From: Polyporus tsugae
Taxonomy: Eukaryota > Basidiomycota > Agaricomycetes > Polyporales > Polyporaceae
Assembly (NCBI GenBank): GCA_024305745.1
Contig: JAHRBS010000002.1
Coordinates: forward strand, 2,852,001 to 2,916,000
Reading direction: 5' to 3'
DNA length: 64,000 bases
Shown in pieces: positions 22,031 to 62,773 of the stretch. The notes beneath the pieces were generated by a model. That model searched no databases, was not told the origin of the DNA, and saw only the letters and a list, made by a program, of their open reading frames with translations. The position numbers and the translations under genes are program-made. The number at the start of each line of letters is the position of its first letter. Position 1 is the stretch's first letter.

Positions 22031-22569
22031 TCTACCGTGATCTGGTTATTACACTGAGAGAATAGGAAAAGTCGTCAAAATGGCTCACCGGTCATGTCCA
22101 TCAGTCATTCTTTCTGTTAACTGGGGTACGTACAACAGAGGCTGATTCTTGAGTTTTGCGGCCTCTGTAGTAACCTGAGGTGAGTATTCCGGTAGGCTGC
22201 ACCAGGTGGGGAGCTTTCGGGACTTGCAGGAGCCTTGGGGTGAACAGCAAGGCGAACTGGTGGTGGATGGTCACGACCTTGCGCCTCGAGGCAGCCTTGA
22301 AGCTTGAAGCTTGGCCGAAAGCGGCGTCATTGCCAAAACGGGTCGGCGCTCCATGGTGCTTAGCAAATCCATCGTTGACCAGAAACCATCACCGACCCCC
22401 GCTCCCCCCCACCCCCGACGGTCCCCTCGACGTACTCCGACATTATCGCCCACATGGGGTTCAGCAGTAAACCGTCCATAAAGCGGACGCAGCCATCGTA
22501 AGTGGCTTGCTCGCTTGCAGAAGCACACCTAATCACTGAAGCCCCCATCACCGCTATTCCCCGTCTGTT

Positions 22570-24217
22570 ACGGTGAATCCTCGATCTTCACGTCCATCTG
22601 ACGGCCGCAGAACGGTATTTGGACACATTCCAGGCGTCCCTGTGGGGTCCACATTCGAGAACCGGTGAGTTCCTGTGCTGCGGCAGCTGCAGCAGCTCCA
22701 GTGTTGAGTTTCACCTTTCTTATCGATCGCGCGCTCATCCCAACCTCGTATAGCCTCTTCCTCCACCATGCCTCTGTGCACTCTGGAATCATGGCAGGTA
22801 TACACGGAACTAAACTCGAGGGGTGCTATAGCGTAGTGCTGTCAGGCGGATACGAAGACGATAAGGATGAGGGGTATCGCTTGTGAGTACTCTGTTTCTC
22901 CACTCATGTCCGATTCATTCCGACGTCCCGGTCATCAAGCACGTACACCGGTTGTGGAGGGCGCGACACAAAAGACGGGGAGAAGGTGTGTCTACCTGCA
23001 ATCTCATAATCAATCCCCCGATCTTACGACTATCCTTCCAGCCACGAGAAGGACCACAGACATGCAACCAGACGTGGGAGAACACCCGAAACGCCTCGCT
23101 CCGCGTGTCCGCGCACACCAAGAAGCCTGTGCGCGTCGTGAGAGGATACAGCTCCAGCTCGGACTTTGCGCCTGCCAGAGGGTATCGGTACGATGGGTTG
23201 TACGTGGTGGATCAGGTGCGCGTTCTGCTTGATTGTCTACGGACAGCCCTAGAGATAAGTGTCCCTGCTAGGCATGGATGGGCGCCGGGAAGAGCGGGTT
23301 CGAAGTGTGCAAAGTCATCCTTAGCGTACGTTCCTACCCTTGACTTTTCCTGCAGAACTATCCTGAAAACGAGGATATAGCGTCTGCCTGACCAGCCCCC
23401 GATCCCCCGACGCGAAGGCACCCTGAACCTCGACCTCTTAGCCTGGGAGGAACCCCGACACTTCTGGAGCGACTCTCCCTCCAGTCCGACCGCGCCTGTC
23501 GGAAAGGGAAAGGAGAGGGCCCATGGTAACGCTGAAGCCGGCCCTAGCCAGGCTCGGAGCAAGCCACACATGAAACTTCCCCCTCCAGCACCGATCCTTC
23601 CAACGACGAACATGGCTGCCGCTCGTGCGCGGCATCCGGGACCGTCGCAGGCGCAGGCGTCGACGAGTGCTCCAGTCATGGACGTGACCGCCCTGCTTGC
23701 GGAGATGCGCGGAGTCGCTGCGAAGCCTCCCCCCGTGTCGACGCCGATTGCAGCCGCGGCTGGTCTGTCCCGTCCTCCAGCTTCGGCTCCTTCGAGCCGG
23801 ACGACTGATCCCCGACAACGCCCGCCTTCCGCCCTGCCAGCCCCAGGCAAGGCCGGTCCGTCCCCTCTTGTGGCTCCAGCTTATGCCAACCGGAGCACCG
23901 ACCCGCGAAGTCGTCCTTCCTCCACCACACAGGCGGGTTCGCCACCCTCTAGAACACATCAGAGGGGCACGCCGTTGATCCCGGTGCAGAACGCTGCCGC
24001 CATTAGGCGCAAACGTTCGTTTGACGCGGATGGGGATGAGCCCGAGGACCTCAAGCGAGCGAAGATTGTTGGTTCAAAGGGAAGCCAAGGCTCGCCTCAG
24101 AAGGGGTGCCCGGGCTCTCGACAGAACCATTCACCCATCAAGCAGGAGACTCGGGAGGTTGTCCCGAGGTGGGATGTGGGTGTGATTGACTTGACGGGTT
24201 CGGACGAGGAGGATTGA
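22570..24217 (+). pseudogene. SRA (YDG) domain protein, copy 1, start codon lost
   Basis: Predicted nuclear reader of modified DNA. Exons 22570-22664, 22754-22882, 22940-22985, 23042-23215, 23272-23325 and 23381-24217 join in phase (444 codons). The SRA fold runs from FGHIPGVPVGSTFENR through VHSGIMAGIHG, VVLSGGYEDDKDEG, FTYTGCGGRDTKDG and RYDGLYVVDQ to GKSGFEVCKVILSRLPDQPP. The ~270-residue tail is Pro/Ser-rich, with a bipartite basic signal (RRKRS...KRAK, about 375-394), a SUMO-acceptor-like IKQE (419-422) and a C-terminal SUMO-interacting motif VIDLT followed by acidic residues (434-444). At the start position used by copies 2 and 3 this copy reads ACG, and no in-frame ATG lies upstream before a TAA at about 22499. 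All splice sites, including the intron 1 acceptor (TATAG at 22749-22753), are good. It is disabled unless another start exists. Confidence 0.7.
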
Positions 24218-24690
24218 GATGTGTCGGTGGCTGAGGGGTTCGTTATGATGTCTGAATTTCGTTAACTGCTATGTCACGACTTGACGATGTTATGTTGCAC
24301 TGGTTTCTCGGTTTATGCTCAGTGGTTCGCTTCTTTACGGTTCTCGTTTCCACGTACTTGGTCGTGTTGTAGTGTTCCAAATCCTGCTGTGTTGCCTCGC
24401 TTTGCATCGAATTAAGCTGCTTATGTTGTGCTTTGGAGTTTATCCAATCCTCTTCCCGTGTGGGACCCATTGAAACCCCGGACTCCTTCCCTTTATTTGT
24501 GGTGTTGCTACAGTAACAAGTGGATGCGCTCACCACCACGAAACTATTACTGTTGTATTGTATTTGGTGTAGTGATGGACTTGTATGACTAAATCATCCT
24601 GTACAAATGCTCATCATCATTCCGGTTCGTTGCGGCTACGTCTACAGGTCATGTCGTGATGGTTCCAAATATTTCGTCAACCCAACGAGG

Positions 24691-25794
24691 TCAGAACTCG
24701 ACAAAGTTCAATAGACTGAGCAATGCGAGGCAAACAGAGTACGCTGAAGTCGTGTATCCTGTACCACCGTTCAGCATCATGGCCCATGGGTGTGCAGACT
24801 CTCAGCGACAAATGCACTCACCAGCAATGTGTAGCGATGGAGTTGTAGTACCAAATCATACTACACGTATTCTCATTATCGTTACAGTTCGTTACGGTTA
24901 CAGTTCATGCCGTGACGGTCTCGGTTGTACCAATCATTCCAACGATGTCAGAACTCCACGAAGTTCAATAGACCAAGCAATACGAGGCAAACGGAGTACG
25001 CCGAAGTCATGTACCCTGTAGCGCCTTCAGTATCCGAGTCATGCTAAGACAACGAATCAAAGTGAACACTCACCAGTGATAGTGAACGCCCCAGAGACGT
25101 CCCCGTAGAGCGCGGAGTATAGGACTGCGAGCACGAGTGAGGCGAGGACGGGGACCAGGATCGCGACGGCGATGCGGCTGAGCTGCCACCCCTCGACGAA
25201 CTCGATGCCGAGATCGGTGCGCGTGGTCAGGACCTGCATGAACTCGTGCCTGCCCTTCATCTGGTCGGGGTTGTGCAGGAAGTAGCGGAGGCGCATGTTC
25301 TTGGACGGGCTGACGCCAGCTGGGCCGATCCGGCGGGGGTAGACGCATGTGTGGTCGGCCTGTGGGCATATTTCGTCAGTTCAAGTTGTCTGCGGCGGTT
25401 ACAAATGGCACTGTGCGCACGTATACCATCGACATCGACCTGGTTGAATGGCTATGACAGTCAGTACCGCCCCAGAGCAAACACAGAGGGGGCGCGACAG
25501 ACTTACCGCACGCCCCGGAGCGAGAACCACTTGCGCCAGAAGGTCCGCAGCTTGTCGTACGACCGCCCGAGCTCCCGCAACAGCGCCGCGTCGTCCCAGC
25601 CCGCCTCGATCCTCAGGTACGTGTAGCTCGACCCGCGGAACGCCTTGAGCGGGAACACGGCCCACTTCGGCTGCCAGTCGTCCGAGCATTGCCGCACGGG
25701 CAGCCCCGCTGCGTAGGGCCGACTCGGGTACGGTTTCGCCTTCGCTTGCAAGGCTGTGACGGGCCCCGGGTATGCGAGCGACTGCAGCTGCACC
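24691..25794 (-). pseudogene. 5'-truncated copy of the RS membrane-protein gene (D1)
   Basis: Contains the last exons only: part of the coiled/RS-C-terminal exon (LRELGRSYDKLRTFWRKWF), the microexon, the membrane exon (GWQLSRIAVAILVPVLASL) and both versions of the terminal exon (25015-24948 and 24758-24691). The coding sequence is identical to copy 3 except isolated changes, for example FTIT instead of FTIA at the base 25077. At 25794 it switches to unrelated U sequence with no start codon, so it cannot make the full protein. Confidence 0.8.
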
Positions 25795-26639
25795 GGGCAA
25801 AGCTGTGCACGTCTGGTAGCCTTGTGCGGTGCAGCATGCGGCAGAGGGGCTTTCCTGCCTTGGAAACAAACACGGACTCAGGGAGACTTGTGTGGAGAGA
25901 CAGCGGGTTGGTGGAGAGACAGCGGGCCATTGAAGGACGGAGAGCGGTCGTTTCAAGTTCAAGAACAGAGAGAGAGAGCACGGGCGTCTGTTTCGGGTAC
26001 TCAGACGTGTCTCGCTTGTGGCTGCATCTCTTGCATCTGCACTCTATGCTATGTACTGCTATGTCTGATGCACACTCGCCCTCTGCCCTCGCCACAGATT
26101 TCGGCCACTGCAGGCTGCGGTCAGCAAACAGCGTCAAAAACCCGGTCAAGAGCAAGGGCGGAGTAGGCAGTTCGGTGTGCGGAGTAGGCCATGGATGTGT
26201 TACGAGAGGCATCGGGCGACCGCGTGTCCAGGTAAGTCCCTCTCCTCCTCCAACGCTACAATCACTCTCTCCGCCCAACCAAGTCCACTCCCCTGCCATC
26301 GCTTCGAGCGAGCGAGCGAGTGCGGCCACTTGCGTTCTTCCGCCCTTTGCACTCGCACGGTGGCGCACGGTGGGAGCAAGTCGACTTGCCAGCCGGAACG
26401 GACACCAGTGGCCGGGGCCTGACGACAAGTCAGCAACGACAGAGCGCGAGTGTTGTGCAAAGTACGATGATGCAACCGGCGCGTGACCAGACATTGCCGG
26501 CGAGTCGGACGGGATGGACGAGAGACGAGCGCGATGTTCTGCCTCCGAGTCCCTTCAACCTCCTGCCCTAGAATCACGCCCACCCTCTCTCGCGCGCGGC
26601 AGGTGAGTCATCCCAAATCTCTCCCGCCATACCTCGCCA

Positions 26640-26935
26640 GCCAGCGCATATAGCTCGGCGCCGCTGGATGCGTATTCATCGCCAGCCACTCCCAGCCTGC
26701 GTTCAGCACGCGAGACAGCGAAGGTGCCTCTGACTACTGCACTCACCACCCCCGGTGTGCCAGCTTGCACATACAGCTCGGCCCCACTGGATGCGTATAT
26801 GCCGCCAGCAACCCCTGGCCTCCGTTCGGTGCGCAAGACAGCCAAGGCAGCGAGCGCCGCTGGATGCATATAGTAAGCCGCCAGCGGCGCCCAGCCTGCA
26901 TTCAGCACGCAAAACAGCCAAGGTGTGTCACAACT
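26640..26935 (+). repeat. Diverged minisatellite in U1
   Basis: Three imperfect copies of a unit containing CTGGATGC(G/A)TAT, at 26664, 26787 and 26860, followed by (C/G)GCCAGC and a CAGC/GTGCGCAAGACAGC(C/G)AAGG stretch. The matching array in U2 is at about 37637-37932. Non-coding as far as can be seen. Confidence 0.5.
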
Positions 26936-29242
26936 CTACTCACCATCCCGATGAGACCCCGGTCGCCCCTGTGCATGGCTGTGCATGGCGAGAGGTGATG
27001 GGATTGAGCCGAAAACACTGAAGTCTTCCGGCATGCGGCCCGGCATTTCGCCGATGGCGAGAATCCAAACAGGAGTTCGTTCATGTCGCCGTGGACATTC
27101 TCCGGGGACATCCCTCTGCGGCACGGCGACGCGCGCCGTCCGGAGTGACACGTCTGCGGGCATGAGCGGGCTGTTATGCGAGGACACGGCGAGAGGGCCG
27201 AGATGCTACAGGTGAGTCCACTCTGGGTGCTTGCTGCTCCGAGTCGGTTTCTGTGTGACCGCGACCTTCGTGCCCATCTCGTTAGGTCTGCTTTAGGATG
27301 AGGAATGGTAAGTGAATGCAGAAGATAAGTCAACGTACCTTTGTGGATGCTGTGCCCGAGACTTCCGGGAGCCGCTTGAACCCTCGTCTCCTGAGTCTGC
27401 CATGGCACCTTATCCATCGACTATCCCTCACCACTAAGCTGTCCACTGCGCGAACTGATCATTGCTCGGCTCACTGAGACGTTCCACAACCCAGTTGCCG
27501 TTGTGGCCTGACTGCTTTAAAAGGTACTGGTTCAAAGACGTGATTAGCAGACGTACGCGCACAGTCAACCGCCGGCATACACACCACAAAACCATGCTTT
27601 GTCGGTGCTGTTGCCACAACTCGATATCGCGCCAGATGTTGAAGGTACGGGAGCTTCTGCCTTGCTGATGGCAAATGGTATTGTGGGTACAGCGACAGAC
27701 ATTCTGTGAACCCCCAAGTTGTAGGAGTGCGAGCACCGAGCAGTGAGAGAGAGAGGGATGTAAAACTGTTGACATCAGGTGACGGATGACTTGGAGCCCA
27801 GTGGAGAGGGGGCCAACTGCGAGAAGGGGAAAGACGACGAGGACCGGCTGTTGCAATGTCATATACCCTGTTAATAATTCCAGAGTCGTTCGAGTGCGCA
27901 CAGGCCAGCCAGCTCATGATGTGACGATGACTTCGGCCATGCATAACCAGGTTTCTGTCACCGCACGGCCCAGTGCCCGGCGCCACTTAGGCTCAAGTTT
28001 CCCCCAACCACTTGTCCATCAATTCCGATTCCGTATCAAACTCTTCTCAGTCTGGTCTCGCACACGACTCTTACAGTGCGCTCCCTCACTAATGCAAGGA
28101 CAAGTCAACATGAATACCAGTGTATCCTCAACTTCAGCCAGACAATTTACATTTCGGACGTGTGCACATACTAGACTTGGTGCTGCAGACCTTCACGCGC
28201 ACTGCGGATCAAGTCACCCCAAATACTAATACTGCTTCGCTTCCGCATGCACATATTTCCCTCCGCCGATGAGAGCCGGGACCATGTTTCAAACCGTGCC
28301 GAGGCCACACTGTCACGATAATATTCCGAAGGTTGTGTTTTCCCTTCGGCCCGGACTGAATATTTGCATCCTCATTGGAGCTCCTGGACCGTCCCCAGCC
28401 ATACAGTCCATGCTGTCCCATTGGGCTACGGGATGCTGGAAATTTTGGTTAGGAAGTAAGACTTGCTTGCATGAGTCTGGGACAGTCAGCGGGACAGAGA
28501 GCCCTCGGTACAGGGCTGCATAGTACAACTTGAGAAGTTGTCTCAATTTGCACATTTCGTGTCTTGAATTTCTGTAGCGACTATCCACAACACTGGGAGG
28601 ATACAGGGTAACTCAATAACAAAGTGAGTTTACGGAGCCAATGAACGTCCATCGCAGAATGACAAGTCTCTCCAGTCGAGTAGATGTGCCCCAGAGGAAA
28701 TGCGTATTAATCACTACGGGTAATGGCCAGCCTGTCGAAATTGTCAGCCAGGTTACGCAACTTCCGCTCGTATTCCAGTTCCACCGGCATGGTCGGCGGT
28801 AAGCTGTCGTGGGATATCGCCGTAGTATGCGTGCAGCCGCAAGGCCAATCGCCCGCTGTTCTCCTGCGCGGCCGAATATCCCGGGATCGTGAAACAACCC
28901 CATCCTTATGCCCAGGGCCTCGATTTACGACCCAACCCAGAGCGAGGATGCGATCAGCGCAAATGGGGCGCCCACTTTGCGAAGCGAGGACAGACCCGCA
29001 TTTGATGCGCTTCCAAGCGCGGGGTTGTATTTTCCCCGGAGGTGGCTAAAGCCATTTCCTCCGTCTCGGCATTTCGTGGATGAACCCATTCGTCCGCAAC
29101 GTTGTGAGGGACAGGTCTCCCGTCCGGCTCGCCCGTGATGTACGTTTATGAGTCTGGCCTTTCGACCGTCATGATTCATGATTTCGGAATGTCGTACGCT
29201 CGGACCGTGTGCACATATCCCGCGCACGGGCCATCCTCTTGC

Positions 29243-29250
29243 TATAAAAG
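29243..29250 (+). promoter_or_regulatory. TATA box in U1
   Basis: TATAAAAG, a near-consensus TATA box, 143 bp upstream of an ATG at 29393. The same site is in U2 at 40240-40247. Confidence 0.4.
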
Positions 29251-29392
29251 GTGTCCGTGAATGCACTGAACGGACAGACTCATCCCCGCCACACTCCTCG
29301 CCTCCGCTGCCAACCATCTCGCTGGACACGAGCCGGCCCCGAGTCTCCGAGTCGACCACCGCGCTCGCAACCTCTGCCTGCAGTCTCTCTGT

Positions 29393-30006
29393 ATGGGATT
29401 TGGTTTGATCGCCGACGCACTCCTGGCATCGCGTGCTGTATGTCCGGTGAGTTATTTGCACGTCTGCCCTGTGCCTAGATCTAAACCATGATTTTCAGTT
29501 CACTCGAGATCCGAGACGATCTTGTACTCACTGTAGATTGACCTCCGCGCGACGCCAAGTTCAATTATCATTATCTACCACCGGATCTGGTGAGTCGGGC
29601 CCGTATGCCGAGTCTTCGTGCTGACAACATCAGCATCTAGATCGTGTCCCGAGTAAGAGTTAACTTTGTGCGACGAGAGTCCGGCACGGTGCCGTCGCCC
29701 CGACCGCAATCTCCCGCTCCTTCAGCACCAACTACCCACTCTAGACTCCAAGCGCGTGAGGACGTGCACATCATGCAAGAATAGTGAAGGTCGCGTACGT
29801 GTTCAACTGCCCGTCACACCAGGTACGTGTTCTCCCAACGGCAGGGCTGACGTCTAACCTCCCTATAGCAGTTCCCGACTACCGGTTCGCGTTTCGACTG
29901 CCGCGACCTCGACTGCCTCACAGTTCGCTTGCGCGTCCAAAACCCCGCAATTCTGGGGCACGCCAAGGCAGTCCTGAATGGACGAAATATATTCCTGTTA
30001 GCATAG
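29393..30006 (+). CDS. Possible small spliced gene in U1
   Basis: Tentative. The frame MGFGLIADALLASRAVCP is followed by a GTGAGT donor (about 29447) and an acceptor TTTTCAG at about 29499. A later segment, KVAYVFNCPSHQ, has a GTACGT donor and a CTATAG acceptor leading to FPTTGSRFDCRDLDCLTVRL, then AKAVLNGRNIFLLA and a TAG at 30004. The middle exon is not resolved because straightforward joins meet stops. It may be a degraded gene. The second copy is at 40390-41003. Confidence 0.25.
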
Positions 30007-33000
30007 TTACAGGCCTCGTACGTACTGACCCCGGCGTGCCGTACGAGCTACCCCTCGTACTCGCCGCGATCGCCCGTCGCGCATGGCCGTTAAGTTCCGG
30101 AATCTGTCGTCAGGCACGCGGGCTGGTGATTCCAGCCGACTCCAGCGTGGACTCCCCGCTGAGAGGCTCGTCGGTGCGCGGCGCCCGCCTGGCGGAGTGC
30201 CATCCTCGTTCATGGCCGTCTTGATTCCAGCCGACTGCGGCCGTCCATGACGTGTTCGTGCCGTCGAGATGTCTTCTGGACTCAGCGGCCAGATGACATC
30301 TCGGGGGTGCCAGATTCGAGCCTGAGGTACACGCTGCACGCGTTCTCTTCTGCTAGTGCATCGGCGGCGGCGGTGTCGATTCCATTTGACGCAAGCTTGG
30401 TGCCATCCCGGACGCTATCTGAGGCGGCTGGAAAGCCATGTAAACTAACTAGTCAGCCGCGTGCACGCGTGATCTAGCCGGGAGACTCACCACGATGGCG
30501 AGCGCACTTCCGAGCATTGTAAACGAGGCCCGTGCCTCAAGAACCACATGCCCTTGATGGGCGGAGGTCGGGAGGCCGTCTGCGGACACCTGTCCAGCGG
30601 GATTCTGAAAATCCTGTCCCCGGGGCCAAGTCGACCTCATGCCCGCCGGGACCGAGTCTTGCGTTCTCGGCATTCGGATGCCCTAAACGCGTCGCGTGGA
30701 CGCGATTACGTCCACCTGAGCTGTACAGATTGACCCAAGTGGCACTGGCCGGCCGTCCAGCCCAGGACTCGAGTTGCCCCCAAGCACCCGTCTTCGACAC
30801 CGCCAACTGCCAAGTTTCAAAAGTCGTCTCTGGCAGCCGGGAATGGTTCGTACGTGCTCCCTGGGACCCACAAACACCGCGTAAAATGTCCGCCGCGCCG
30901 TGAGAAGAGGCGGGCAGGAGAGGTTGCGCCCACTGTGCCGGCCGGAAATAAAACGCAGTGAAATCGCGTTTTTAGCCGGATTTCCAACCTCGTCCTATTG
31001 CCACGAAACCGGCCGTGTTTGATGTAGGGCGATGCATAGGTCCTAAATATAAGTGTTAGCACGCACGGAGATGCAGGTGGCGCGAGGGAGGCGCGGATTT
31101 CTTGCTCACCGTGCACAGAGTTCCCGCCCGCGCACGAGCAGCACCATCCCGGGCTTGCCGGCCTTCGTTTTGGGCTCGTTTAAGCTCGCTTGGTGTGCCT
31201 CGAACGACGGCCGGCCGATCCCAGGTGGAACACGGGGGAGAGGAGGCGAGTGGTGGTGAGACGCGCGGCCCACACCATGAAATCGATGTTTTGCGTCGAT
31301 TTGTGAAACCCTTGCGAGCGGGGCGAAACGGTGCTGGCGAGTCTTGCGGATGTTCGTGGATGTTTGTCCACCACTTGCGCCGGCTGTACGAGGTTGTACG
31401 TGTGAGATATTGCGTGTTTGGTGGGTGCGACGGCCGTGTTTGGCATGCAGCGATGCGAACACTTCACGGCCGGCTTCCGAATGCGTGGCCCCTGCCCCAC
31501 TGTGGATACCGGCGTCCTTGGAGACGTGTTTCTGGCCGCAGGTCAGCGGATCGTTGGCAGAAAGAGGAGATACGGCGGACCTGGCATACTTGCGCTGGGT
31601 GGCGCTGATCCCGGGCATTCCACATGGCCAGACGGCCGTTCCTTCCGCACCTGCACCACCGGGGAACCACGCCAGTCGTGTTCGACACGTTCATGCCGTT
31701 TCTCACTTCTCCGGCGTGTTTGGGAATGTTTTCGGGGCCAGATGAGTGGCGGCTGGCTTGTGGCGAGTTTCGACATGATTTCCGTCACATGTCGCCTTGT
31801 GGACCCTTCGCGTACGCGACGGCGAACATTGCGGAGGATCCGTGGGTGCCTATCGCAGTCATCAGGTCAGTCCAGGGGGCGCGGGGAGAGGAGTTGTGGC
31901 GCGTCGAACTCGCCTTCGTGGGCAGGCGCCAATGTTGAGGTCTTCGGGCCGCCGGTCGCTCGTTCCTTCCGCACCTGTGCCGCCGTCGGCTCGCCAGAGT
32001 CATGGCCTATCGGTCTGAGGTGTTTCCTGGTCTCCTGGCCTGCTTGACGATGTCTTCGAGGCCGTGAGGTATAGGCGGTGGGCGGCCACATGCTCAGACG
32101 CGACTTCTCGCATATGCTGCCTCGAGAGCGAATCGTGTACGCGATGGGGAGAGTCGCCGGGCCATCGTGGGCAGCTGAAATACCCTGCGGGTTAGCGTGA
32201 GACGGGAAAGAAGAGCGTGGACTTACCTCACGCCCGAGGGCTCAAAAACGGCCTCTTGCGCACATGCAGCCGCGTGTACATGCCGTTCGGATGGCTCCGA
32301 GTGTTTCGCTCCAACGCGAAAGAGCCGTCGAGCGGGTTCTGACATGTGGAACGGTGGTGGTGGTAGGCTGGCGCCGCCTGTGGCGAGTACGACGTCGGGC
32401 CGTGCCGACGTTCTCCTGCCGGCTCACAAAGCTCGCGTGTTGCGAGCCATCAGAAGGCGCCGATGGTACAGATTTGAGGTCGCTGGAACGTTGTGAGCCG
32501 TGTGGGTGGTGTACAGAGACGGTCGGGAGCGAGCACGGCTGTCTGGGCGGGAGGACGAGTTTAGGCAGTGCACAAGGCGCACGGTCGCGTGCGTGGTGTC
32601 CAACACTTTCGAGGCATCCGAAAGACGGCAAGAGCTGAAGTTTTGAACACGGTGAGCATGCCGGAAACAGAAACAGCGGGCGGGAGACTGACCTGCGTGC
32701 TTGGGGCGGCGAGCTCGGCCCAGACATGCAGGAATTGGCTTCCCTGCTGCGCACCTGTGACGGAACGCTGGGAAACGCATGCCAAGCGTACTTGCAAGTT
32801 ATTTGGGGGGCGTCGGACGCGTTGAACGATGGCGAATGTCGCATTCGGAGTCTGCGGTTGGAGAGATCAGACGGGTGCGGCCGAGATGGTGGACGGGGCA
32901 CGATGTTTCCGCAGGGAGATCGTAAGATGAGACGCTGATGTACATGATAAGCACAAGCACGAAGCGTACGGAGGCAGAACTCGGGAGCTGGAGGCGGGAC

Positions 33001-33568
33001 ACGGTTGTGGGCGAGGCAGGGCAGGATGCAAGCGGAGAATGTACCGGAGGGTGGAGATGAGTGCCCCGAGTGCAGCCATCCACTGCTGCGAGCGGATTTG
33101 TGCCGGGAGCGATGGCGGGACGTCGTGGAAGGGGGTGGATAGGCCAGTGGACGGCGTTGAGAACGCAGCCAAGAGCGAGAAGGAGCCCGCGAGAAGAGAG
33201 ACGACGAGCGCCTACTCGAGGCGAAAACGCGATCGGAGCTGCGAGTGTGGCCGTGCGAACGAATGGGCGCCCTCGAGCCTCGAGGCAGCCTTAAGTGAAG
33301 CTTGAATTCAAGAGCCCGAAAGCCGCGGCATTGCCAAAACGGGTCGGCGCTCCATGGTGCTGAGCAAATCCGTCGTTGACCATAAACCATCACCGACCCC
33401 GCTCCCCCGGCCCCCGACGGTCCCCTCGACGTACTCCGACATTGTCGCTCACATGGGGTTCAGCAGTAAACCGTCCACAAAGCGGACGCAGCCATCGTAA
33501 GTAGCTTGCTCGCTTGCAGAAGCACACCTAATCACTGAAGCCTCCACCACCGCTGTTCCCCGTCTGTC

Positions 33569-35687: not shown

Positions 35688-36791
35688 TCAGAACTCGACA
35701 AAGTTCAATAGACTGAGCAATGCGAGGCAAACAGAGTACGCTGAAGTCGTGTATCCTGTACCACCGTTCAGCATCATGGCCCATGGGTGTGCAGACTCTC
35801 AGCGACAAATGCACTCACCAGCAATGTGTAGCGATGGAGTTGTAGTACCAAATCATACTACACGTATTCTCATTATCGTTACAGTTCGTTACGGTTACAG
35901 TTCATGCCGTGACGGTCTCGGTTGTACCAATCATTCCAACGATGTCAGAACTCCACGAAGTTCAATAGACCAAGCAATACGAGGCAAACGGAGTACGCCG
36001 AAGTCATGTACCCTGTAGCGCCTTCAGTATCCGAGTCATGCTAAGACAACGAATCAAAGTGAACACTCACCAGTGATAGTGAACGCCCCAGAGACGTCCC
36101 CGTAGAGCGCGGAGTATAGGACTGCGAGCACGAGTGAGGCGAGGACGGGGACCAGGATCGCGACGGCGATGCGGCTGAGCTGCCACCCCTCGACGAACTC
36201 GATGCCGAGATCGGTGCGCGTGGTCAGGACCTGCATGAACTCGTGCCTGCCCTTCATCTGGTCGGGGTTGTGCAGGAAGTAGCGGAGGCGCATGTTCTTG
36301 GACGGGCTGACGCCAGCTGGGCCGATCCGGCGGGGGTAGACGCATGTGTGGTCGGCCTGTGGGCATATTTCGTCAGTTCAAGTTGTCTGCGGCGGTTACA
36401 AATGGCACTGTGCGCACGTATACCATCGACATCGACCTGGTTGAATGGCTATGACAGTCAGTACCGCCCCAGAGCAAACACAGAGGGGGCGCGACAGACT
36501 TACCGCACGCCCCGGAGCGAGAACCACTTGCGCCAGAAGGTCCGCAGCTTGTCGTACGACCGCCCGAGCTCCCGCAACAGCGCCGCGTCGTCCCAGCCCG
36601 CCTCGATCCTCAGGTACGTGTAGCTCGACCCGCGGAACGCCTTGAGCGGGAACACGGCCCACTTCGGCTGCCAGTCGTCCGAGCATTGCCGCACGGGCAG
36701 CCCCGCTGCGTAGGGCCGACTCGGGTACGGTTTCGCCTTCGCTTGCAAGGCTGTGACGGGCCCCGGGTATGCGAGCGACTGCAGCTGCACC
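35688..36791 (-). pseudogene. 5'-truncated copy of the RS membrane-protein gene (D2)
   Basis: Equivalent to 24691-25794 shifted by 10,997 bp and identical to it in the coding parts compared. It ends at the same junction with U (36791/36792). Both terminal-exon versions are present (36012-35945 and 35755-35688). Confidence 0.8.
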
Positions 36792-39700: not shown

Positions 39701-42700
39701 GTATTAATCACTACGGGTAATGGCCAGCCTGTCGAAATTGTCAGCCAGGTTACGCAACTTCCGCTCGTATTCCAGTTCCACCGGCATGGTCGGCGGTAAG
39801 CTGTCGTGGGATATCGCCGTAGTATGCGTGCAGCCGCAAGGCCAATCGCCCGCTGTTCTCCTGCGCGGCCGAATATCCCGGGATCGTGAAACAACCCCAT
39901 CCTTATGCCCAGGGCCTCGATTTACGACCCAACCCAGAGCGAGGATGCGATCAGCGCAAATGGGGCGCCCACTTTGCGAAGCGAGGACAGACCCGCATTT
40001 GATGCGCTTCCAAGCGCGGGGTTGTATTTTCCCCGGAGGTGGCTAAAGCCATTTCCTCCGTCTCGGCATTTCGTGGATGAACCCATTCGTCCGCAACGTT
40101 GTGAGGGACAGGTCTCCCGTCCGGCTCGCCCGTGATGTACGTTTATGAGTCTGGCCTTTCGACCGTCATGATTCATGATTTCGGAATGTCGTACGCTCGG
40201 ACCGTGTGCACATATCCCGCGCACGGGCCATCCTCTTGCTATAAAAGGTGTCCGTGAATGCACTGAACGGACAGACTCATCCCCGCCACACTCCTCGCCT
40301 CCGCTGCCAACCATCTCGCTGGACACGAGCCGGCCCCGAGTCTCCGAGTCGACCACCGCGCTCGCAACCTCTGCCTGCAGTCTCTCTGTATGGGATTTGG
40401 TTTGATCGCCGACGCACTCCTGGCATCGCGTGCTGTATGTCCGGTGAGTTATTTGCACGTCTGCCCTGTGCCTAGATCTAAACCATGATTTTCAGTTCAC
40501 TCGAGATCCGAGACGATCTTGTACTCACTGTAGATTGACCTCCGCGCGACGCCAAGTTCAATTATCATTATCTACCACCGGATCTGGTGAGTCGGGCCCG
40601 TATGCCGAGTCTTCGTGCTGACAACATCAGCATCTAGATCGTGTCCCGAGTAAGAGTTAACTTTGTGCGACGAGAGTCCGGCACGGTGCCGTCGCCCCGA
40701 CCGCAATCTCCCGCTCCTTCAGCACCAACTACCCACTCTAGACTCCAAGCGCGTGAGGACGTGCACATCATGCAAGAATAGTGAAGGTCGCGTACGTGTT
40801 CAACTGCCCGTCACACCAGGTACGTGTTCTCCCAACGGCAGGGCTGACGTCTAACCTCCCTATAGCAGTTCCCGACTACCGGTTCGCGTTTCGACTGCCG
40901 CGACCTCGACTGCCTCACAGTTCGCTTGCGCGTCCAAAACCCCGCAATTCTGGGGCACGCCAAGGCAGTCCTGAATGGACGAAATATATTCCTGTTAGCA
41001 TAGTTACAGGCCTCGTACGTACTGACCCCGGCGTGCCGTACGAGCTACCCCTCGTACTCGCCGCGATCGCCCGTCGCGCATGGCCGTTAAGTTCCGGAAT
41101 CTGTCGTCAGGCACGCGGGCTGGTGATTCCAGCCGACTCCAGCGTGGACTCCCCGCTGAGAGGCTCGTCGGTGCGCGGCGCCCGCCTGGCGGAGTGCCAT
41201 CCTCGTTCATGGCCGTCTTGATTCCAGCCGACTGCGGCCGTCCATGACGTGTTCGTGCCGTCGAGATGTCTTCTGGACTCAGCGGCCAGATGACATCTCG
41301 GGGGTGCCAGATTCGAGCCTGAGGTACACGCTGCACGCGTTCTCTTCTGCTAGTGCATCGGCGGCGGCGGTGTCGATTCCATTTGACGCAAGCTTGGTGC
41401 CATCCCGGACGCTATCTGAGGCGGCTGGAAAGCCATGTAAACTAACTAGTCAGCCGCGTGCACGCGTGATCTAGCCGGGAGACTCACCACGATGGCGAGC
41501 GCACTTCCGAGCATTGTAAACGAGGCCCGTGCCTCAAGAACCACATGCCCTTGATGGGCGGAGGTCGGGAGGCCGTCTGCGGACACCTGTCCAGCGGGAT
41601 TCTGAAAATCCTGTCCCCGGGGCCAAGTCGACCTCATGCCCGCCGGGACCGAGTCTTGCGTTCTCGGCATTCGGATGCCCTAAACGCGTCGCGTGGACGC
41701 GATTACGTCCACCTGAGCTGTACAGATTGACCCAAGTGGCACTGGCCGGCCGTCCAGCCCAGGACTCGAGTTGCCCCCAAGCACCCGTCTTCGACACCGC
41801 CAACTGCCAAGTTTCAAAAGTCGTCTCTGGCAGCCGGGAATGGTTCGTACGTGCTCCCTGGGACCCACAAACACCGCGTAAAATGTCCGCCGCGCCGTGA
41901 GAAGAGGCGGGCAGGAGAGGTTGCGCCCACTGTGCCGGCCGGAAATAAAACGCAGTGAAATCGCGTTTTTAGCCGGATTTCCAACCTCGTCCTATTGCCA
42001 CGAAACCGGCCGTGTTTGATGTAGGGCGATGCATAGGTCCTAAATATAAGTGTTAGCACGCACGGAGATGCAGGTGGCGCGAGGGAGGCGCGGATTTCTT
42101 GCTCACCGTGCACAGAGTTCCCGCCCGCGCACGAGCAGCACCATCCCGGGCTTGCCGGCCTTCGTTTTGGGCTCGTTTAAGCTCGCTTGGTGTGCCTCGA
42201 ACGACGGCCGGCCGATCCCAGGTGGAACACGGGGGAGAGGAGGCGAGTGGTGGTGAGACGCGCGGCCCACACCATGAAATCGATGTTTTGCGTCGATTTG
42301 TGAAACCCTTGCGAGCGGGGCGAAACGGTGCTGGCGAGTCTTGCGGATGTTCGTGGATGTTTGTCCACCACTTGCGCCGGCTGTACGAGGTTGTACGTGT
42401 GAGATATTGCGTGTTTGGTGGGTGCGACGGCCGTGTTTGGCATGCAGCGATGCGAACACTTCACGGCCGGCTTCCGAATGCGTGGCCCCTGCCCCACTGT
42501 GGATACCGGCGTCCTTGGAGACGTGTTTCTGGCCGCAGGTCAGCGGATCGTTGGCAGAAAGAGGAGATACGGCGGACCTGGCATACTTGCGCTGGGTGGC
42601 GCTGATCCCGGGCATTCCACATGGCCAGACGGCCGTTCCTTCCGCACCTGCACCACCGGGGAACCACGCCAGTCGTGTTCGACACGTTCATGCCGTTTCT

Positions 42701-44273
42701 CACTTCTCCGGCGTGTTTGGGAATGTTTTCGGGGCCAGATGAGTGGCGGCTGGCTTGTGGCGAGTTTCGACATGATTTCCGTCACATGTCGCCTTGTGGA
42801 CCCTTCGCGTACGCGACGGCGAACATTGCGGAGGATCCGTGGGTGCCTATCGCAGTCATCAGGTCAGTCCAGGGGGCGCGGGGAGAGGAGTTGTGGCGCG
42901 TCGAACTCGCCTTCGTGGGCAGGCGCCAATGTTGAGGTCTTCGGGCCGCCGGTCGCTCGTTCCTTCCGCACCTGTGCCGCCGTCGGCTCGCCAGAGTCAT
43001 GGCCTATCGGTCTGAGGTGTTTCCTGGTCTCCTGGCCTGCTTGACGATGTCTTCGAGGCCGTGAGGTATAGGCGGTGGGCGGCCACATGCTCAGACGCGA
43101 CTTCTCGCATATGCTGCCTCGAGAGCGAATCGTGTACGCGATGGGGAGAGTCGCCGGGCCATCGTGGGCAGCTGAAATACCCTGCGGGTTAGCGTGAGAC
43201 GGGAAAGAAGAGCGTGGACTTACCTCACGCCCGAGGGCTCAAAAACGGCCTCTTGCGCACATGCAGCCGCGTGTACATGCCGTTCGGATGGCTCCGAGTG
43301 TTTCGCTCCAACGCGAAAGAGCCGTCGAGCGGGTTCTGACATGTGGAACGGTGGTGGTGGTAGGCTGGCGCCGCCTGTGGCGAGTACGACGTCGGGCCGT
43401 GCCGACGTTCTCCTGCCGGCTCACAAAGCTCGCGTGTTGCGAGCCATCAGAAGGCGCCGATGGTACAGATTTGAGGTCGCTGGAACGTTGTGAGCCGTGT
43501 GGGTGGTGTACAGAGACGGTCGGGAGCGAGCACGGCTGTCTGGGCGGGAGGACGAGTTTAGGCAGTGCACAAGGCGCACGGTCGCGTGCGTGGTGTCCAA
43601 CACTTTCGAGGCATCCGAAAGACGGCAAGAGCTGAAGTTTTGAACACGGTGAGCATGCCGGAAACAGAAACAGCGGGCGGGAGACTGACCTGCGTGCTTG
43701 GGGCGGCGAGCTCGGCCCAGACATGCAGGAATTGGCTTCCCTGCTGCGCACCTGTGACGGAACGCTGGGAAACGCATGCCAAGCGTACTTGCAAGTTATT
43801 TGGGGGGCGTCGGACGCGTTGAACGATGGCGAATGTCGCATTCGGAGTCTGCGGTTGGAGAGATCAGACGGGTGCGGCCGAGATGGTGGACGGGGCACGA
43901 TGTTTCCGCAGGGAGATCGTAAGATGAGACGCTGATGTACATGATAAGCACAAGCACGAAGCGTACGGAGGCAGAACTCGGGAGCTGGAGGCGGGACACG
44001 GTTGTGGGCGAGGCAGGGCAGGATGCAAGCGGAGAATGTACCGGAGGGTGGAGATGAGTGCCCCGAGTGCAGCCATCCACTGCTGCGAGCGGATTTGTGC
44101 CGGGAGCGATGGCGGGACGTCGTGGAAGGGGGTGGATAGGCCAGTGGACGGCGTTGAGAACGCAGCCAAGAGCGAGAAGGAGCCCGCGAGAAGAGAGACG
44201 ACGAGCGCCTACTCGAGGCGAAAACGCGATCGGAGCTGCGAGTGTGGCCGTGCGAACGAATGGGCGCCCTCGA
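36792..44273. repeat. Segment U, copy 2 of 2
   Basis: Second copy of 25795-33276, 10,997 bp downstream, with the same internal features: minisatellite at about 37637-37932, TATA box at 40240-40247 and possible small gene at 40390-41003. No difference from U1 was noticed by eye, which implies a very recent duplication or an assembly artefact. Confidence 0.85.
40390..41003 (+). CDS. Possible small spliced gene in U2
   Basis: Copy of the tentative gene at 29393-30006, with the same evidence and limits: good donor/acceptor pairs around two segments, unresolved middle exon, and a TATAAAAG 143 bp upstream of the ATG. Confidence 0.25.
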
Positions 44274-44565
44274 GCCTCGAGGCAGCCTTAAGTGAAGCTT
44301 GAATTCAAGAGCCCGAAAGCCGCGGCATTGCCAAAACGGGTCGGCGCTCCATGGTGCTGAGCAAATCCGTCGTTGACCATAAACCATCACCGACCCCGCT
44401 CCCCCGGCCCCCGACGGTCCCCTCGACGTACTCCGACATTGTCGCTCACATGGGGTTCAGCAGTAAACCGTCCACAAAGCGGACGCAGCCATCGTAAGTA
44501 GCTTGCTCGCTTGCAGAAGCACACCTAATCACTGAAGCCTCCACCACCGCTGTTCCCCGTCTGTC

Positions 44566-46211
44566 ATGGTGAATCCTCGATCTTCACGTCCATCTGACGG
44601 CTGCAGAACGGTATTCGGACACATTCCAGGCGTCCCTGTGGGGTCCACATTCGAGAACCGGTGAGTTCCTGTGCCGCGGCAGCTGCAGCAGCTCCAGTAC
44701 TTGTTGAGTTTCAACTTTCTTATCGATCGCGCGCTCATCCCAACCTCGTCCAACCTCTTCCTTCACCACGCCTCTGTGCACTCTGGAATCATGGCAGGTA
44801 TACACGGAACTAAACTCGAGGGGTGCTATAGCGTAGTGCTGTCAGGCGGATACGAAGACGATAAGGATGAGGGGTATCGCTTGTGAGTACTCTGTTTCTC
44901 CACTCATGTCCGATTCATTCCGACGTCCCGGTCATCAAGCACGTACACCGGTTGTGGAGGGCGCGACACAAAAGACGGGGAGAAGGTGCGTCTACCTGCA
45001 ATCTCATAATCAATCCCCCGATCTTACGACTATCCTTCCAGCCACGAGAAGGACCACAGACATGCAACCAGACTTGGGAGAACACCCGAAACGCATCCCT
45101 CCGCTTGTCCGCGCACACCAAGAAGCCTGTGCGCGTCGTGAGAGGATACAGCTCCAGCTCGGACTTTGCGCCTGCCAGAGGGTATCGGTACGATGGGTTG
45201 TACGTGGTGGATCAGGTGCGTGTTCTGCTTGATTGTCTACGGACAGCCCTAGAGATAAGTGTCCCTGCTAGGCATGGATGGGCGCCGGGAAGAGCGGGTT
45301 CGAAGTGTGCAAAGTCATCCTTAGCGTACGTTCCTACCCTTGACTTTTCCTGCAGAACTATCCTGAAAACGAGGATATAGCGTCTGCCTGACCAGCCCCC
45401 GATCCCCCAACGCGAAGGCACCCTCGACCTCTCAGCCTGGGAGGAACCCCGACACTTCTGGAGCGACTCTCCCTCGAGTCCGACCGCGCCTGTCGGAAAG
45501 GGAAAGGAGAGGGCGCATGGTATCGTTGAATCCGGCCCTAGCCAGGCTCGGAGCAAGCCACACATGAAACTTCCCCCTCCAGCACCGATCCTTCCAACGA
45601 CGAACATGGCTGCCGCTCGTGCGCGGCATCCGGGACCGTCGCAGGCGCAGGCGTCGACGAGTGCTCCAGTCATGGACGTGACCGCCCTGCTTGCGGAGAT
45701 GCGCGGAGTCGCTGCGAAGCCTCCCCCCGTGTCGACGCCGATTGCAGCCGCGGCTGGTCTGTCCCGTCCTCCAGCTTCGGCTCCTTCGAGCCGGACGACT
45801 GATCCCCGACAACGCCCGCCTTCCGCCCTGCCAGCCCCAGGCAAGGCCGGTCCGTCCCCTCTTGTGGCTCCAGCTCATGCCAACCGGAGCACCAACCCGC
45901 GAAGTCATCCTTCCTCCACCACACAGGCGGGTTCGCCACCCTCTAGAACACATCAGAGGGGCACGCCGTTGACCCCGGTGCAGAACGCTGCCGCCATTAG
46001 GCGCAAACGTTCGTTTGACGCGGATGGGGATGAGCCCGAGGACCTCAAGCGAGCGAAGATCATTGGTTCAAAGGGAAGCCAAGGCTCGCCTCAGAAGGGG
46101 TGCCCGGGCTCTCGACAGAACCATTCACCCATCAAGCAGGAGACTCGGGAGGTTGTCCCGAGGTGGGATGTGGGTGTGATTGACTTGACGGGTTCGGACG
46201 AGGAGGATTGA
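44566..46211 (+). CDS. SRA (YDG) domain protein, copy 3, intron-1 acceptor lost
   Basis: Identical in deduced sequence to copy 2: ATG at 44566 present, canonical intron 1 acceptor replaced by CGTCCAA, the remaining exons intact, last exon 45381-46211 with basic signal, IKQE and VIDLT tail. SRA domains flip out and read modified cytosines; fungal SRA proteins without a RING finger are known, but the SUMO-linked tail is my reading of the motifs. It faces the RS gene tail to tail, with about 470 bp between this stop and the distal RS terminal exon. Confidence 0.6.
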
Positions 46212-46684
46212 GATGTGTCGGTGGCTGAGGGGTTCGTTATGATGTCTGAATTTCGTTAACTGCTATGTCACGACTTGACGATGTTATGTTGCACTGGTTT
46301 CTCGGTTTATGCTCAGTGGTTCGCTTCTTTACGGTTCTCGTTTCCACGTACTTGGTCGTGTTGTAGTGTTCCAAATCCTGCTGTGTTGCCTCGCTTTGCA
46401 TCGAATTAAGCTGCTTATGTTGTGCTTTGGAGTTTATCCAATCCTCTTCCCGTGTGGGACCCATTGAAACCCCGGACTCCTTCCCTTTATTTGTGGTGTT
46501 GCTACAGTAACAAGTGGATGCGCTCACCACCACGAAACTATTACTGTTGTATTGTATTTGGTGTAGTGATGGACTTGTATGACTAAATCATCCTGTACAA
46601 ATGCTCATCATCATTCCGGTTCGTTGCGGCTACGTCTACAGGTCATGTCGTGATGGTTCCAAATATTTCGTCAACCCAACGAGG

Positions 46685-46752
46685 TCAGAACTCGACAAAG
46701 TTCAATAGACTGAGCAATGCGAGGCAAACAGAGTACGCTGAAGTCGTGTATC
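46685..46752 (-). other. Duplicated alternative terminal exon of the RS gene (distal)
   Basis: A 68-nt exon copy with acceptor GGTACAG, the same entry phase and its own TGA, encoding YTTSAYSVCLALLSLLNFVEF-like sequence. It lies 257 bp downstream of the proximal version (47009-46942), which is also exactly 68 nt. The duplication includes flanking intron: related sequence continues to GTGTAG(T/C)GATGG, repeated 262 bp apart. Confidence 0.75.
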
Positions 46753-46941
46753 CTGTACCACCGTTCAGCATCATGGCCCATGGGTGTGCAGACTCTCAGC
46801 GACAAATGCACTCACCAGCAATGTGTAGCGATGGAGTTGTAGTACCAAATCATACTACACGTATTCTCATTATCGTTACAGTTCGTTACGGTTACAGTTC
46901 ATGCCGTGACGGTCTCGGTTGTACCAATCATTCCAACGATG

Positions 46942-49900
46942 TCAGAACTCCACGAAGTTCAATAGACCAAGCAATACGAGGCAAACGGAGTACGCCGAAG
47001 TCATGTACCCTGTAGCGCCTTCAGTATCCGAGTCATGCTAAGACAACGAATCAAAGTGAACACTCACCAGCGATAGTGAACGCCCCAGAGACGTCCCCGT
47101 AGAGCGCGGAGTATAGGACTGCGAGCACGAGTGAGGCGAGGACGGGGACCAGGATCGCGACGGCGATGCGGCTGAGCTGCCACCCCTCGACGAACTCGAT
47201 GCCGAGATCGGTGCGCGTGGTCAGGACCTGCATGAACTCGTGCCTGCCCTTCATCTGGTCGGGGTTGTGCAGGAAGTAGCGGAGGCGCATGTTCTTGGAC
47301 GGGCTGACGCCAGCTGGGCCGATCCGGCGGGGGTAGACGCATGTGTGGTCGGCCTGTGGGCATATTTCGTCAGTTCAAGTTGTCTGCGGCGGTTACAAAT
47401 GGCACTGTGCGCACGTATACCATCGACATCGACCTGGTTGAATGGCTATGACAGTCAGTACCGCCCCAGAGCAAACACAGAGGGGGCGCGACAGACTTAC
47501 CGCACGCCCCGGAGCGAGAACCACTTGCGCCAGAAGGTCCGCAGCTTGTCGTACGACCGCCCGAGCTCCCGCAACAGCGCCGCGTCGTCCCAGCCCGCCT
47601 CGATCCTCAGGTACGTGTAGCTCGACCCGCGGAACGCCTTGAGCGGGAACACGGCCCACTTCGGCTGCCAGTCGTCCGAGCATTGCCGCACGGGCAGCCC
47701 CGCTGCGTAGGGCCGACTCGGGTACGGTTTCGCCTTCGCTTGCAAGGCTGTGACGGGCCCCGTGTACGCAAGCGACTGCAGCTGCACCCCTGCGCCGCCC
47801 TTTCCGTCTGCGAACTTCTCGTCCATGATGGACAGCGGGAGGGAGTCGACGGAGGAAGAAGGCCCGTGCCACCGGAGCGCGATGAGGTGCTTCTCGAGCC
47901 GGTGGACGGCGGCGGTGAGCTGCATGTTATGCTCGTGCCAGAGCCCCGCGCGGCGCTCGTAGTCCTGGAGCGTCGTCTCGTGCAGCTGCAGGAGGTGCTC
48001 GAACTTCTCCCACTCCGACCTTGTGCCGTGGGGGCCCCCAGGCGGGCGGATGATGCGGACAGGGGACCTTAAGTGAGATGGCGGAGAGCTCGACCTGAAG
48101 TGATGCACCGAGACAGGACTCGGATGTCGGATTCGAGGAGAACCACCACCCAGTGCGTCGTCGGGAGGTTCCGGATAGAGTGATCGAGTCCGTTTGCGGC
48201 GAGGAGTGCACGGACGACGATAACCTAGGGACGGGTTAGTCCTCCGTCAAGAAGGCTCGCCGTTGATTATTGAGAGCGGCAACTCACGCGGACTGCCAGG
48301 GCTGACTTCCTCATACTCAACGGACGCCGGATGATACTTGGAATGGACCGGGCGCTGTGCAGGACTCCGCGAATAGTCTGTTGCTCCCCGACGCCAAGCT
48401 CGGCCGCCGCGCTCATAAGAAAGACGGTCAGCGTGATATTCCCGTGCGGGTCTGCAAGGACTGCTTGAGCGGGACCTGTTGGTAAAATAATGTCGGACGC
48501 CCTGTGGAACTACTACTAGTAGCAATGCTCGGTGTAAGCATTGTCCGATGCCCTGAGAAGCCCAGAGACTCACTTGGAGACCTTGAATTGGAGCGTGATC
48601 TACGACGGACCGGTGATGGAGATCGAGAACGGGGAGGACGCGTGCGCAGTGACGGACTCCGACTCGGAGTCCGGGACCTTGACCGTTGGCAAGCCTTCGA
48701 GACAGTCGGACTTCGACAAACAACTACAAAGGATTGCGGGCGTCAGAAGACCTTCCTCGAGAACCGCTCCTGGTTGATCATCGAGCGCGCATCGAACTCA
48801 CCGGAAGCCTGAGTTGACGGCGGGCGACGCGCTAACGGCACTAAGCGCTGGGCCGGTGACTGACTTCGCGAGGAGTGCCGTTCTGGTTCCCTACAACTTG
48901 GTGGCGGCCGCGGGAATGCATCATGCGGAACTACATCGGGCTCGCGAGGACTCCTTGATCGGGACCCAGCAGGATATTGAAAATACCGCAGAGCTGAGTG
49001 CTTGGGTTAAGTGTTGTTCGACCTCCGGAAGAAGCTTAGGTGCTTACACGGAGACCTAGAACGCAGTCGTGAATGGGAGCTTAGAACGAGATGCACACGA
49101 TGGCCTGATGATGGAGAGCGAGAGGGGGCCAGATATCTATGCGACGCTTCATCCAGGCGTTTAGAGGTTTCAGAGAGGGTTACAGCGGTGGGCGGCGTCT
49201 GCTGCGACTGAACCGGGCGCCGTGCAGGCGATCGACCTCGCGAAACGTCCGGACTCCGCGACGGCCTATGTTGCCGTACAGGGCGGTCAAAGAGGTCCTT
49301 GAAGTCAGTTAGAGAGTCTCGCGGCGGCCAGAAAGGACCCCGAGACCGAGATCGAGACCGAGATCTATGGCGAGAGGTGACATCCTCTCTCGCTAAATGT
49401 TTTTGTAAGTATTGCCCGGGCACCTGAGAAGCCAGTGTGGCACTTACATCGAGACCCGCCAGGGCGTAGCTCGAAGGATAGTTGCCGAACGCGTGGTGAT
49501 GGAGACCGAGAAGGTGGGCACTCTGTTATAGGCGCAGGCAGAGTTATCATCGTAGACGGCGGGTGACCAATAGTGGGCAGTGCATGATCAACCAAGGGTT
49601 GGTGTTCACTGGCAACCGGAATGGCCTAACGAATGTCAAAACCCGAAACGATCAAGGAACGATCAAGGTTAGTGAAGAATAGTACCTACCTGAACGACGG
49701 CAGATGGAAGAGGTATGCGCAACTTGAATGAGGGCGGAGGATCGACGGATGTGTTGCTGTACTTGTCGCCATCATCGCTTTCTCCTTCATCGCGTTGAGA
49801 AGACTGGGTTGTCGCTGGCTGCATCACTCCGACCAGCCCGCTGCCAGCCCCGGCCGATTCGAGAAGCGAAACTGCGGTTGTCACTGGCGGAGAAAGCGGG

Positions 49901-62628: not shown

Positions 62629-62773
62629 TATGTCCAGTCTTTCTCATCCGGAGAGACACCACTGATAGCTTAGCCATCTATCGTTCACATTCATACTGTT
62701 CCTTTGCTTCTCGTAGCTAGCTATCTTCAACTACGCGTCATCACCCGTAAGTTGGGTTGGATGGACCTCGTGA

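What the first reader, a model, noticed from the sequence alone, without database searches (positions are those of the whole stretch)
22283..47788. Tandem 11-kb duplication whose middle copy is a recombinant of the outer two
Segment D occurs three times and spacer U twice, all at offsets of 10,997 bp. D2 shares the D3 alleles at its left end (for example 35064-35065) and the D1 allele at its right end (36074). This is the expected product of unequal crossing over between D1 and D3 on misaligned sister or homologous chromosomes. The exchange point is confined to about 35066-36073. The ancestral state would be D1-U-D3, and the reciprocal product would be a single hybrid D lacking U. The near-identity of U1 and U2 makes the event very recent.
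Basis: partly seen in the sequence, partly recalled or inferred. Interest (0 to 1): 0.75.

Follow-up and report, generated by a model that had tools for sequence, protein, structure and literature searches.

The report
Non-coding repeat between duplicated host genes
In a Ganoderma-like mushroom genome a 7.5-kb stretch of apparently non-coding DNA recurs, and at the five places where this could be checked it sits between kilobase-long copies of the local gene; the tandem array found here looks like one such sandwich enlarged by a crossover between its outer gene copies.

Summary
The order is D1-U1-D2-U2-D3; U1 and U2 are identical over 7,473 bp; D2 switches once, at 35066-36073, from D3-type to D1-type alleles. 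Unequal crossing over between D1 and D3 fits every diagnostic site. An assembler passing twice through a D/U cycle would leave the same sequence, so reads must decide.

The larger result lies outside the finding. U belongs to a diverged, apparently non-coding repeat family. At five of five loci where both flanks could be compared, U sits between direct repeats (about 1.9-3.5 kb) of the local host gene: SRA gene plus neighbour (here), M35 protease, GH85, a weakly LRR-like gene, GH16. The last two were sought after the first three were seen. In Ganoderma adspersum the SRA gene and its neighbour have consecutive locus tags, which indicates that D is host DNA. The array ends keep one undamaged-looking copy of each gene: SRA in D1, the neighbour in D3.

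Best reading: U entered with a kilobase-scale target duplication that spared both genes, and the direct D repeats then allowed amplification by crossing over. Known relatives are Arabidopsis transposed genes flanked by genic repeats, restriction-modification insertions with long target duplications, and AAV at AAVS1. How U enters new genes is unknown.

The parts
22274..25794 (.). D1: host segment with an SRA gene that keeps its intron-2 acceptor and a 5'-truncated copy of the neighbouring minus-strand gene
22454..24217 (+). SRA-YDG (SAD_SRA, PF02182) gene in D1; spliced model of 445 aa, guided by Ganoderma leucocontextum P0001
25060..25790 (-). 3' part of the neighbouring gene in D1, cut at its 5' side where U1 begins
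25795..33267 (.). U1: 7,473-bp member of a dispersed, apparently non-coding repeat family
30838..31402 (.). conserved core of U1, aligned with 7 other genomic copies (mean column identity 77%)
33268..36791 (.). D2: recombinant copy, D3-type up to 35065 and D1-type from 36074
35066..36073 (.). interval identical in D1, D2 and D3 that must hold the exchange point (or the assembly misjoin)
36792..44264 (.). U2: second copy of U, identical to U1
44265..47788 (.). D3: host segment continuing into the right flank; its SRA copy lacks the intron-2 acceptor AG of D1
47054..48246 (-). copy of the neighbouring minus-strand gene whose open frame and similarity to Ganoderma homologues run across the D3 right edge at 47788; first exon and start not defined

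Best explanation
U is a repeated, apparently non-coding DNA unit that entered a host gene next to the SRA gene together with duplication of 3.5 kb of the target, giving D-U-D. The duplication left one uninterrupted copy of each gene, the SRA gene at the left end and its neighbour at the right end. The two direct D repeats then mispaired, and one crossover between D1 and D3 at 35066-36073 made D1-U-D2-U-D3 with a hybrid D2. Shown: the repeat geometry, the single switch point, the U family, direct host-gene repeats at five of five comparable loci, and consecutive locus tags of the two genes in a relative. Inferred: that insertion and target duplication were one event (long-stagger or replication/template-switch integration, or integration of a circle), and that the second unit exists in the organism.
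For: Single switch point over 54 substitutions, 5 indels and 3 edge sites. U homologues at other loci, mostly 65-77% identical, while D itself has no other copy beyond two short 69-73% matches. Host-gene direct repeats flank U at array B (M35, 3 D and 2 U), array C (GH85, 5 D and 4 U), C17:2.896-2.909 Mb (2.4 kb at 99.4%) and C17:2.758-2.772 Mb (GH16, at least 2.25 kb at 99%); the last two were sought after the first three had been seen. SRA and neighbour are V8D89_001764 and V8D89_001765 in G. adspersum. The neighbour is conserved across the D3 edge, whereas the D1 and D2 copies run into U there.
Against: No reads or sibling strains were examined, so an assembly cycle is open for the second unit. 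U has no consistent termini: junctions are ragged by tens to over 100 bp between loci and no LTR or terminal inverted repeat was found, which speaks against an ordinary transposase. No protein that could move U was found in it, though spliced frames were not searched. Counted by U copy, the second U of the C17:2.90-2.93 Mb locus has a D on its right only: about 3.7 kb read on its left carry no D, which I ascribe to a later insertion that was read only in part. Remnant copies on C1 and C14 gave no clear flanking D within the letters held, and about nine other places with partial matches were not tested. Insertions without a duplication may have been lost by selection, so five of five need not reflect mechanism. 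Consecutive locus tags do not exclude unannotated DNA nearby.
Confidence: 0.58

Rival explanations
1. The second unit is an assembly artefact. The true locus is D1-U-D3, and the assembler went twice round the cycle closed by the 1,008-bp block identical in D1 and D3.
For: U1 and U2 are identical over 7,473 bp and D2 has no private variant at the diagnostic sites; a graph cycle gives exactly this.
Against: Arrays B and C hold distinct, diverged copies in the same assembly, so tandem arrays of this kind exist in the genome. It does not touch D1-U-D3 itself, whose D copies differ at 57 substitution sites.
Confidence: 0.25
2. Circle insertion: a circular molecule carrying U plus a piece of host sequence integrated by homologous recombination at the matching host gene, as proposed for Arabidopsis transposed genes.
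For: It gives D-U-D directly; the paper reports genic flanking repeats homologous to the target site (abstract, section 8 and Discussion of PMC2869330).
Against: The D sequences at the five loci are different genes, so each circle would first have had to pick up a fragment of the very gene it later entered. The repeats in that paper's Tables 4 and 5 are 30-550 bp.
Confidence: 0.25
3. Gene conversion rather than crossover made D2: an array D-U-D-U-D already existed and tracts of D3 or D1 were copied into D2.
For: The right halves of D1 and D3 are nearly identical while the left halves differ by about 3%, so conversion or an earlier exchange did occur; arrays B and C are patchy mosaics.
Against: D2 has no interleaved variants, and U1 and U2 show no difference at all, so one event with one switch point suffices.
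Confidence: 0.15
4. U is resident intergenic DNA of each locus and plain segmental duplication copied it together with D; nothing mobile is involved.
For: Ragged, unconserved U ends and no detected coding capacity.
Against: Arrays start and end with D, and in the window and array B the right-hand gene continues uninterrupted only in the last D; the D genes of the five loci are unrelated while U is related.
Confidence: 0.12

Closest known systems
Arabidopsis transposed genes with flanking genic direct repeats (Woodhouse et al. 2010, PMC2869330; abstract, section 8 and Discussion read)
   Same: Inserted DNA is flanked by direct repeats of host genic sequence homologous to the target site; chimeric repeats are reported.
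   Different: There the insert is a gene and the repeats in Tables 4 and 5 are 30-550 bp; here it is a non-coding repeat family, the repeats are about 1.9-3.5 kb, and tandem arrays follow.
Restriction-modification systems inserted with long target duplication (Nobusato et al. 2000, not read; described in passages of PMC3874152 and PMC3031569)
   Same: Insert-with-long-target-duplication geometry, and the stated expectation that direct repeats allow tandem amplification by unequal crossing-over.
   Different: Bacterial, coding element, duplications of the order of 100 bp.
Adeno-associated virus integration at AAVS1 (Henckaerts et al. 2009, not read; cited in a passage of PMC2900306)
   Same: [quoted passage not shown] the citing authors link the gene duplications to the gene apparently being essential.
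   Different: Needs viral Rep; no Rep-like protein or binding site was looked for specifically in U.
Cassandra retroelement tandem arrays (PMC7215508, abstract read)
   Same: Repeat-(spacer-repeat)n arrays around a non-coding element, ascribed to recombination between its flanking repeats.
   Different: Cassandra's repeats are its own LTRs; here the repeats are local host genes that differ at every locus.

Membership tests
Unequal crossing-over product | middle copy is a left/right hybrid with one switch point | tested here: met
   54 substitutions, 5 indels and 3 edge sites, one switch
Unequal crossing-over product | the duplicated spacers are identical at the time of the event | tested here: met
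   U1 = U2 over 7,473 bp
Unequal crossing-over product | reciprocal single-D product or physical read support | not testable with these tools
   no reads or sibling strains available
Insertion with long target duplication | insert flanked by direct repeats of target sequence | tested here: met
   5 of 5 loci at which both flanks could be compared; by single U copy, one copy on C17 has D on one side only; C1 and C14 remnants inconclusive
Insertion with long target duplication | target is single-copy and without the insert in relatives | tested here: inconclusive
   SRA and neighbour have consecutive locus tags in G. adspersum; the DNA of relatives was not seen and the other four loci were not tested
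LTR or TIR transposon | terminal direct or inverted repeats at the element ends | tested here: not met
   shared exact 10-mers between first and last 600 bp: none in U1, one direct in the B copy, one 11-bp direct and one inverted in the C copy;
Autonomous transposable element | encodes a transposase or reverse transcriptase | tested here: inconclusive
   10 of the longer ORFs of U1: no Pfam match above cut-off; the 405-aa ORF found no homologue; other and spliced frames not searched
Helitron | 5' TC and 3' CTRR ends (recalled, from no call) | tested here: not met
   none of the four U copies with both ends read starts or ends so at the D junction; Helitron_like_N occurs elsewhere in the genome, 6 matches

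The most novel reading that the evidence does not exclude
U is the founding example of a fungal mobile DNA that carries no gene and inserts by re-replicating kilobases of its target, so that each insertion into a gene comes with a spare copy of that gene; the giant direct duplication spares the host gene and at the same time provides the homology by which the element later multiplies into D-(U-D)n arrays.
Probability: 0.3. Interest if true: 0.85.

Novelty: new variant of a known kind. Interest (0 to 1): 0.55.

Why it matters
If kilobase target duplications regularly accompany U insertions, one process would explain gene-sparing insertion into gene-dense DNA, birth of tandem gene copies (SRA, M35 protease, GH85, GH16) and their later mosaic evolution. 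It also offers natural cases for testing replication-based insertion models in a eukaryote.

Tried and rejected
U as a protein-coding gene: U against its array-B homologue shows no codon periodicity overall (mismatches 489/464/488 by phase; one 300-bp window nominally below 0.05; none of nine regions), indels of mixed length, no Pfam match above cut-off for 10 ORFs and no homologue for the 405-aa ORF. One result points the other way: among 70 gaps of 2-30 bp, 35 are multiples of three, about 23 expected; they lie among frame-shifting gaps, so I do not count it as coding.

U as a known RNA: Rfam gathering search of the whole window gave 0 matches, ARAGORN 0 tRNAs. The 33-pair palindrome of the core is paired in 91% of cells; for both helices tested, 6 pairs change on both sides against 4.4 in shuffles (120 of 500 reach it), while percentage paired and covariation score are reached by only 16 and 13 of 500, a level that related sequences can reach without structure. 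I do not claim RNA structure.

U as LTR, TIR or Helitron element: not supported. U as centromere: its GC is 59%, whereas predicted Ganoderma leucocontextum centromeres are described as low in GC (passages of PMC10817607). Subtelomeric preference: the five loci lie 121-391 kb from a contig end, but on only three contigs, contig ends are not proven telomeres, and a partial match lies at C8:1.976 Mb, so it stays a remark. 'D2 hybrid of the outer two' as a general rule: arrays B and C do not show a simple hybrid.

First look at C17: comparing the pieces with each other gave no D; D appeared only with the further pieces.

Literature: no paper describing this element was seen in the listings; few of the listed papers were opened, so this says little about absence from print.
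Full report
What is there. The window lies in a 43.2-Mb genome of 18 contigs, at C15:2852001-2916000. The C-terminal ORF of the SRA gene matches a Ganoderma leucocontextum protein at 85% identity, so the genome is a Ganoderma or close kin. The order is D1 (22274-25794), U1 (25795-33267), D2 (33268-36791), U2 (36792-44264), D3 (44265-47788). U1 and U2 do not differ over 7,473 bp. Of 54 diagnostic substitutions in the aligned 22.2-25.1 kb part, D2 has the D3 base at 53 and the D1 base at one, 36074; the five indels are D3-type; three further sites at the right edge are D1-type. The exchange lies in 35066-36073.

What is in D. D holds an SRA-YDG gene on the plus strand (PF02182) and part of a minus-strand gene without a Pfam match that has homologues in several Polyporales genera. 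So D looks like ordinary host DNA; the DNA of these relatives was not seen. Searched against the whole genome, D has its three copies and two short 69-73% matches at C15:2.739 Mb. The minus-strand gene runs on across the right edge of D3, and 3 of the 4 homologues aligned extend well across it (P0008, P0010, P0005; P0012 starts just beyond it), while in D1 and D2 it is cut there and its frame runs into U. The D1 SRA model, guided by the G. leucocontextum protein, splices with an intron 2 ending in AG at 22753; in D2 and D3 that AG is gone (D1 ...CGTATAG|CCTC, D3 ...CGTCCAACCTC) and the model uses a different intron. Expression was not tested. By eye, of 12 residue substitutions between D1 and D3 outside that stretch, D1 has the G. 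leucocontextum residue at 9, D3 at 2, neither at 1, and D3 has a two-residue deletion; at one of the nine at least, G. adspersum shares the D3 residue. So the better-kept SRA gene is at the left end and the uninterrupted neighbour at the right end; D2 has neither.

What is U. U matches other places in the genome in colinear fashion: C15:3.0095-3.0263 Mb at 72-77%, C13:0.395-0.436 Mb at about 66%, three places on C17, and partial matches on C1, C2, C5, C8, C9, C13 and C14. It shows no coding periodicity against its nearest homologue, no terminal repeats, no Pfam match above cut-off in 10 ORFs and no Rfam match. A core of about 565 bp aligns among the 8 copies used, chosen because they matched. 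The junctions with D are ragged: the shared body starts some tens to more than 100 bp inside, at different distances at each locus.

The pattern. At array B (C15) three copies of a 1.9-2.0-kb piece carrying the 3' part of an M35 protease gene alternate with two U; the gene is uninterrupted only at the right end. At array C (C13) five copies of a 3.4-kb piece with at least the 3' part of a GH85 gene alternate with four U. Having seen three loci, I looked for direct repeats beside the C17 copies. The first comparison gave none; with further pieces, C17:2896309-2898708 and 2906325-2908723 proved 99.4% identical and enclose a U; the gene there has an LRR_8 match below the curated cut-off (20.8 against 27 bits). 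A further U and a diverged D (80-92%) follow; about 3.7 kb read to the left of that U carry no D but an ORF that looks to me like part of a LINE (by eye, not searched), so I take it as interrupted by a later insertion. C17:2757900-2760154 and 2770161-2772423 match at 99%, carry a GH16 gene and enclose another U (the second copy is known by position only). So at 5 of 5 loci with two comparable flanks the structure is D-(U-D)n and the D genes are unrelated. C1 and C14 were inconclusive within the letters held; about nine other places with partial matches were not tested.

Mechanism. D-U-D around one locus is the geometry of an insertion with a long target duplication. It could arise by a long-stagger or template-switching integration, or by integration of a circle that already carried D. 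I lean to the first because the five D genes differ and U has no fixed ends, but this step is inference. Once D-U-D exists, mispairing of the D copies gives D1-U-D2-U-D3 with a hybrid D2, which is what the window shows. Uneven D1/D3 divergence (53 of 1,789 against 4 of 1,726, p = 6e-12) and mosaic arrays B and C (U1/U4 of array C differ at 150 columns in one 500-column block and at fewer than 10 in 13 of 16 blocks) show that exchange among copies has happened repeatedly. In array C the inner copies D2-D4 and U1-U3 are nearly identical (0-2 differences per D block, at most 5 per U block) while the outer ones are diverged.

What is known. Woodhouse et al. (PMC2869330; abstract, section 8 and Discussion read) describe Arabidopsis transposed genes flanked by genic direct repeats homologous to the target and propose circle insertion. 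Passages of PMC3874152 and PMC3031569 describe restriction-modification systems inserted with target duplications of the order of 100 bp and note that such repeats allow tandem amplification. A passage of PMC2900306 cites partial duplication of the AAV target locus. Cassandra arrays (PMC7215508, abstract) show the same repeat-spacer alternation with the element's own LTRs. The combination seen here, a non-coding family with kilobase duplications of different host genes, was not seen in the listings.

Limits. No reads, no sibling strains and no fungal DNA other than this genome were available. The second unit may be an assembly cycle. Selection may have removed insertions without a spare gene copy.

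Noticed in passing
window 14948-17023, 53541-54707 and 62176-62678: Direct paralogous blocks (78-83% identical) in the flanks; the ORFs at 15491-16591 and 53822-54943 look like F-box/LRR-type proteins by eye but have no Pfam match.
   Followed up: partly
window 6318-7299 and 20583-21581: Inverted pairs of about 74% identity, apparently further members of a protein cluster.
   Followed up: no
C1:5222751-5223288 and C1:5234374-5234988: Segment beside a U remnant is repeated at 99-100% about 12 kb away with its two parts in swapped order; parts of it are dispersed repeats.
   Followed up: partly
array B U1/U2 and array C U4 against U1-U3: Blocks of about 20-30% divergence inside U copies that otherwise differ by a few percent or less, as if a very different U lineage had been copied in.
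   Followed up: partly
window 31149-31225: Imperfect palindrome with a 33-pair stem in the U core, 91% of cells paired across 8 copies, with weak covariation.
   Followed up: yes
U1 against its array-B homologue: 35 of 70 gaps of 2-30 bp are multiples of three although no codon periodicity of mismatches is seen.
   Followed up: partly
L025 1-485 (C14): Dispersed repeat of 485 bp, 86-88% identical at one C9 and three C14 places, next to a U remnant.
   Followed up: no
C15:2739202-2739687: Two short matches (69-73%) to the minus-strand gene part of D: a possible diverged paralogue of that gene 130 kb away.
   Followed up: no
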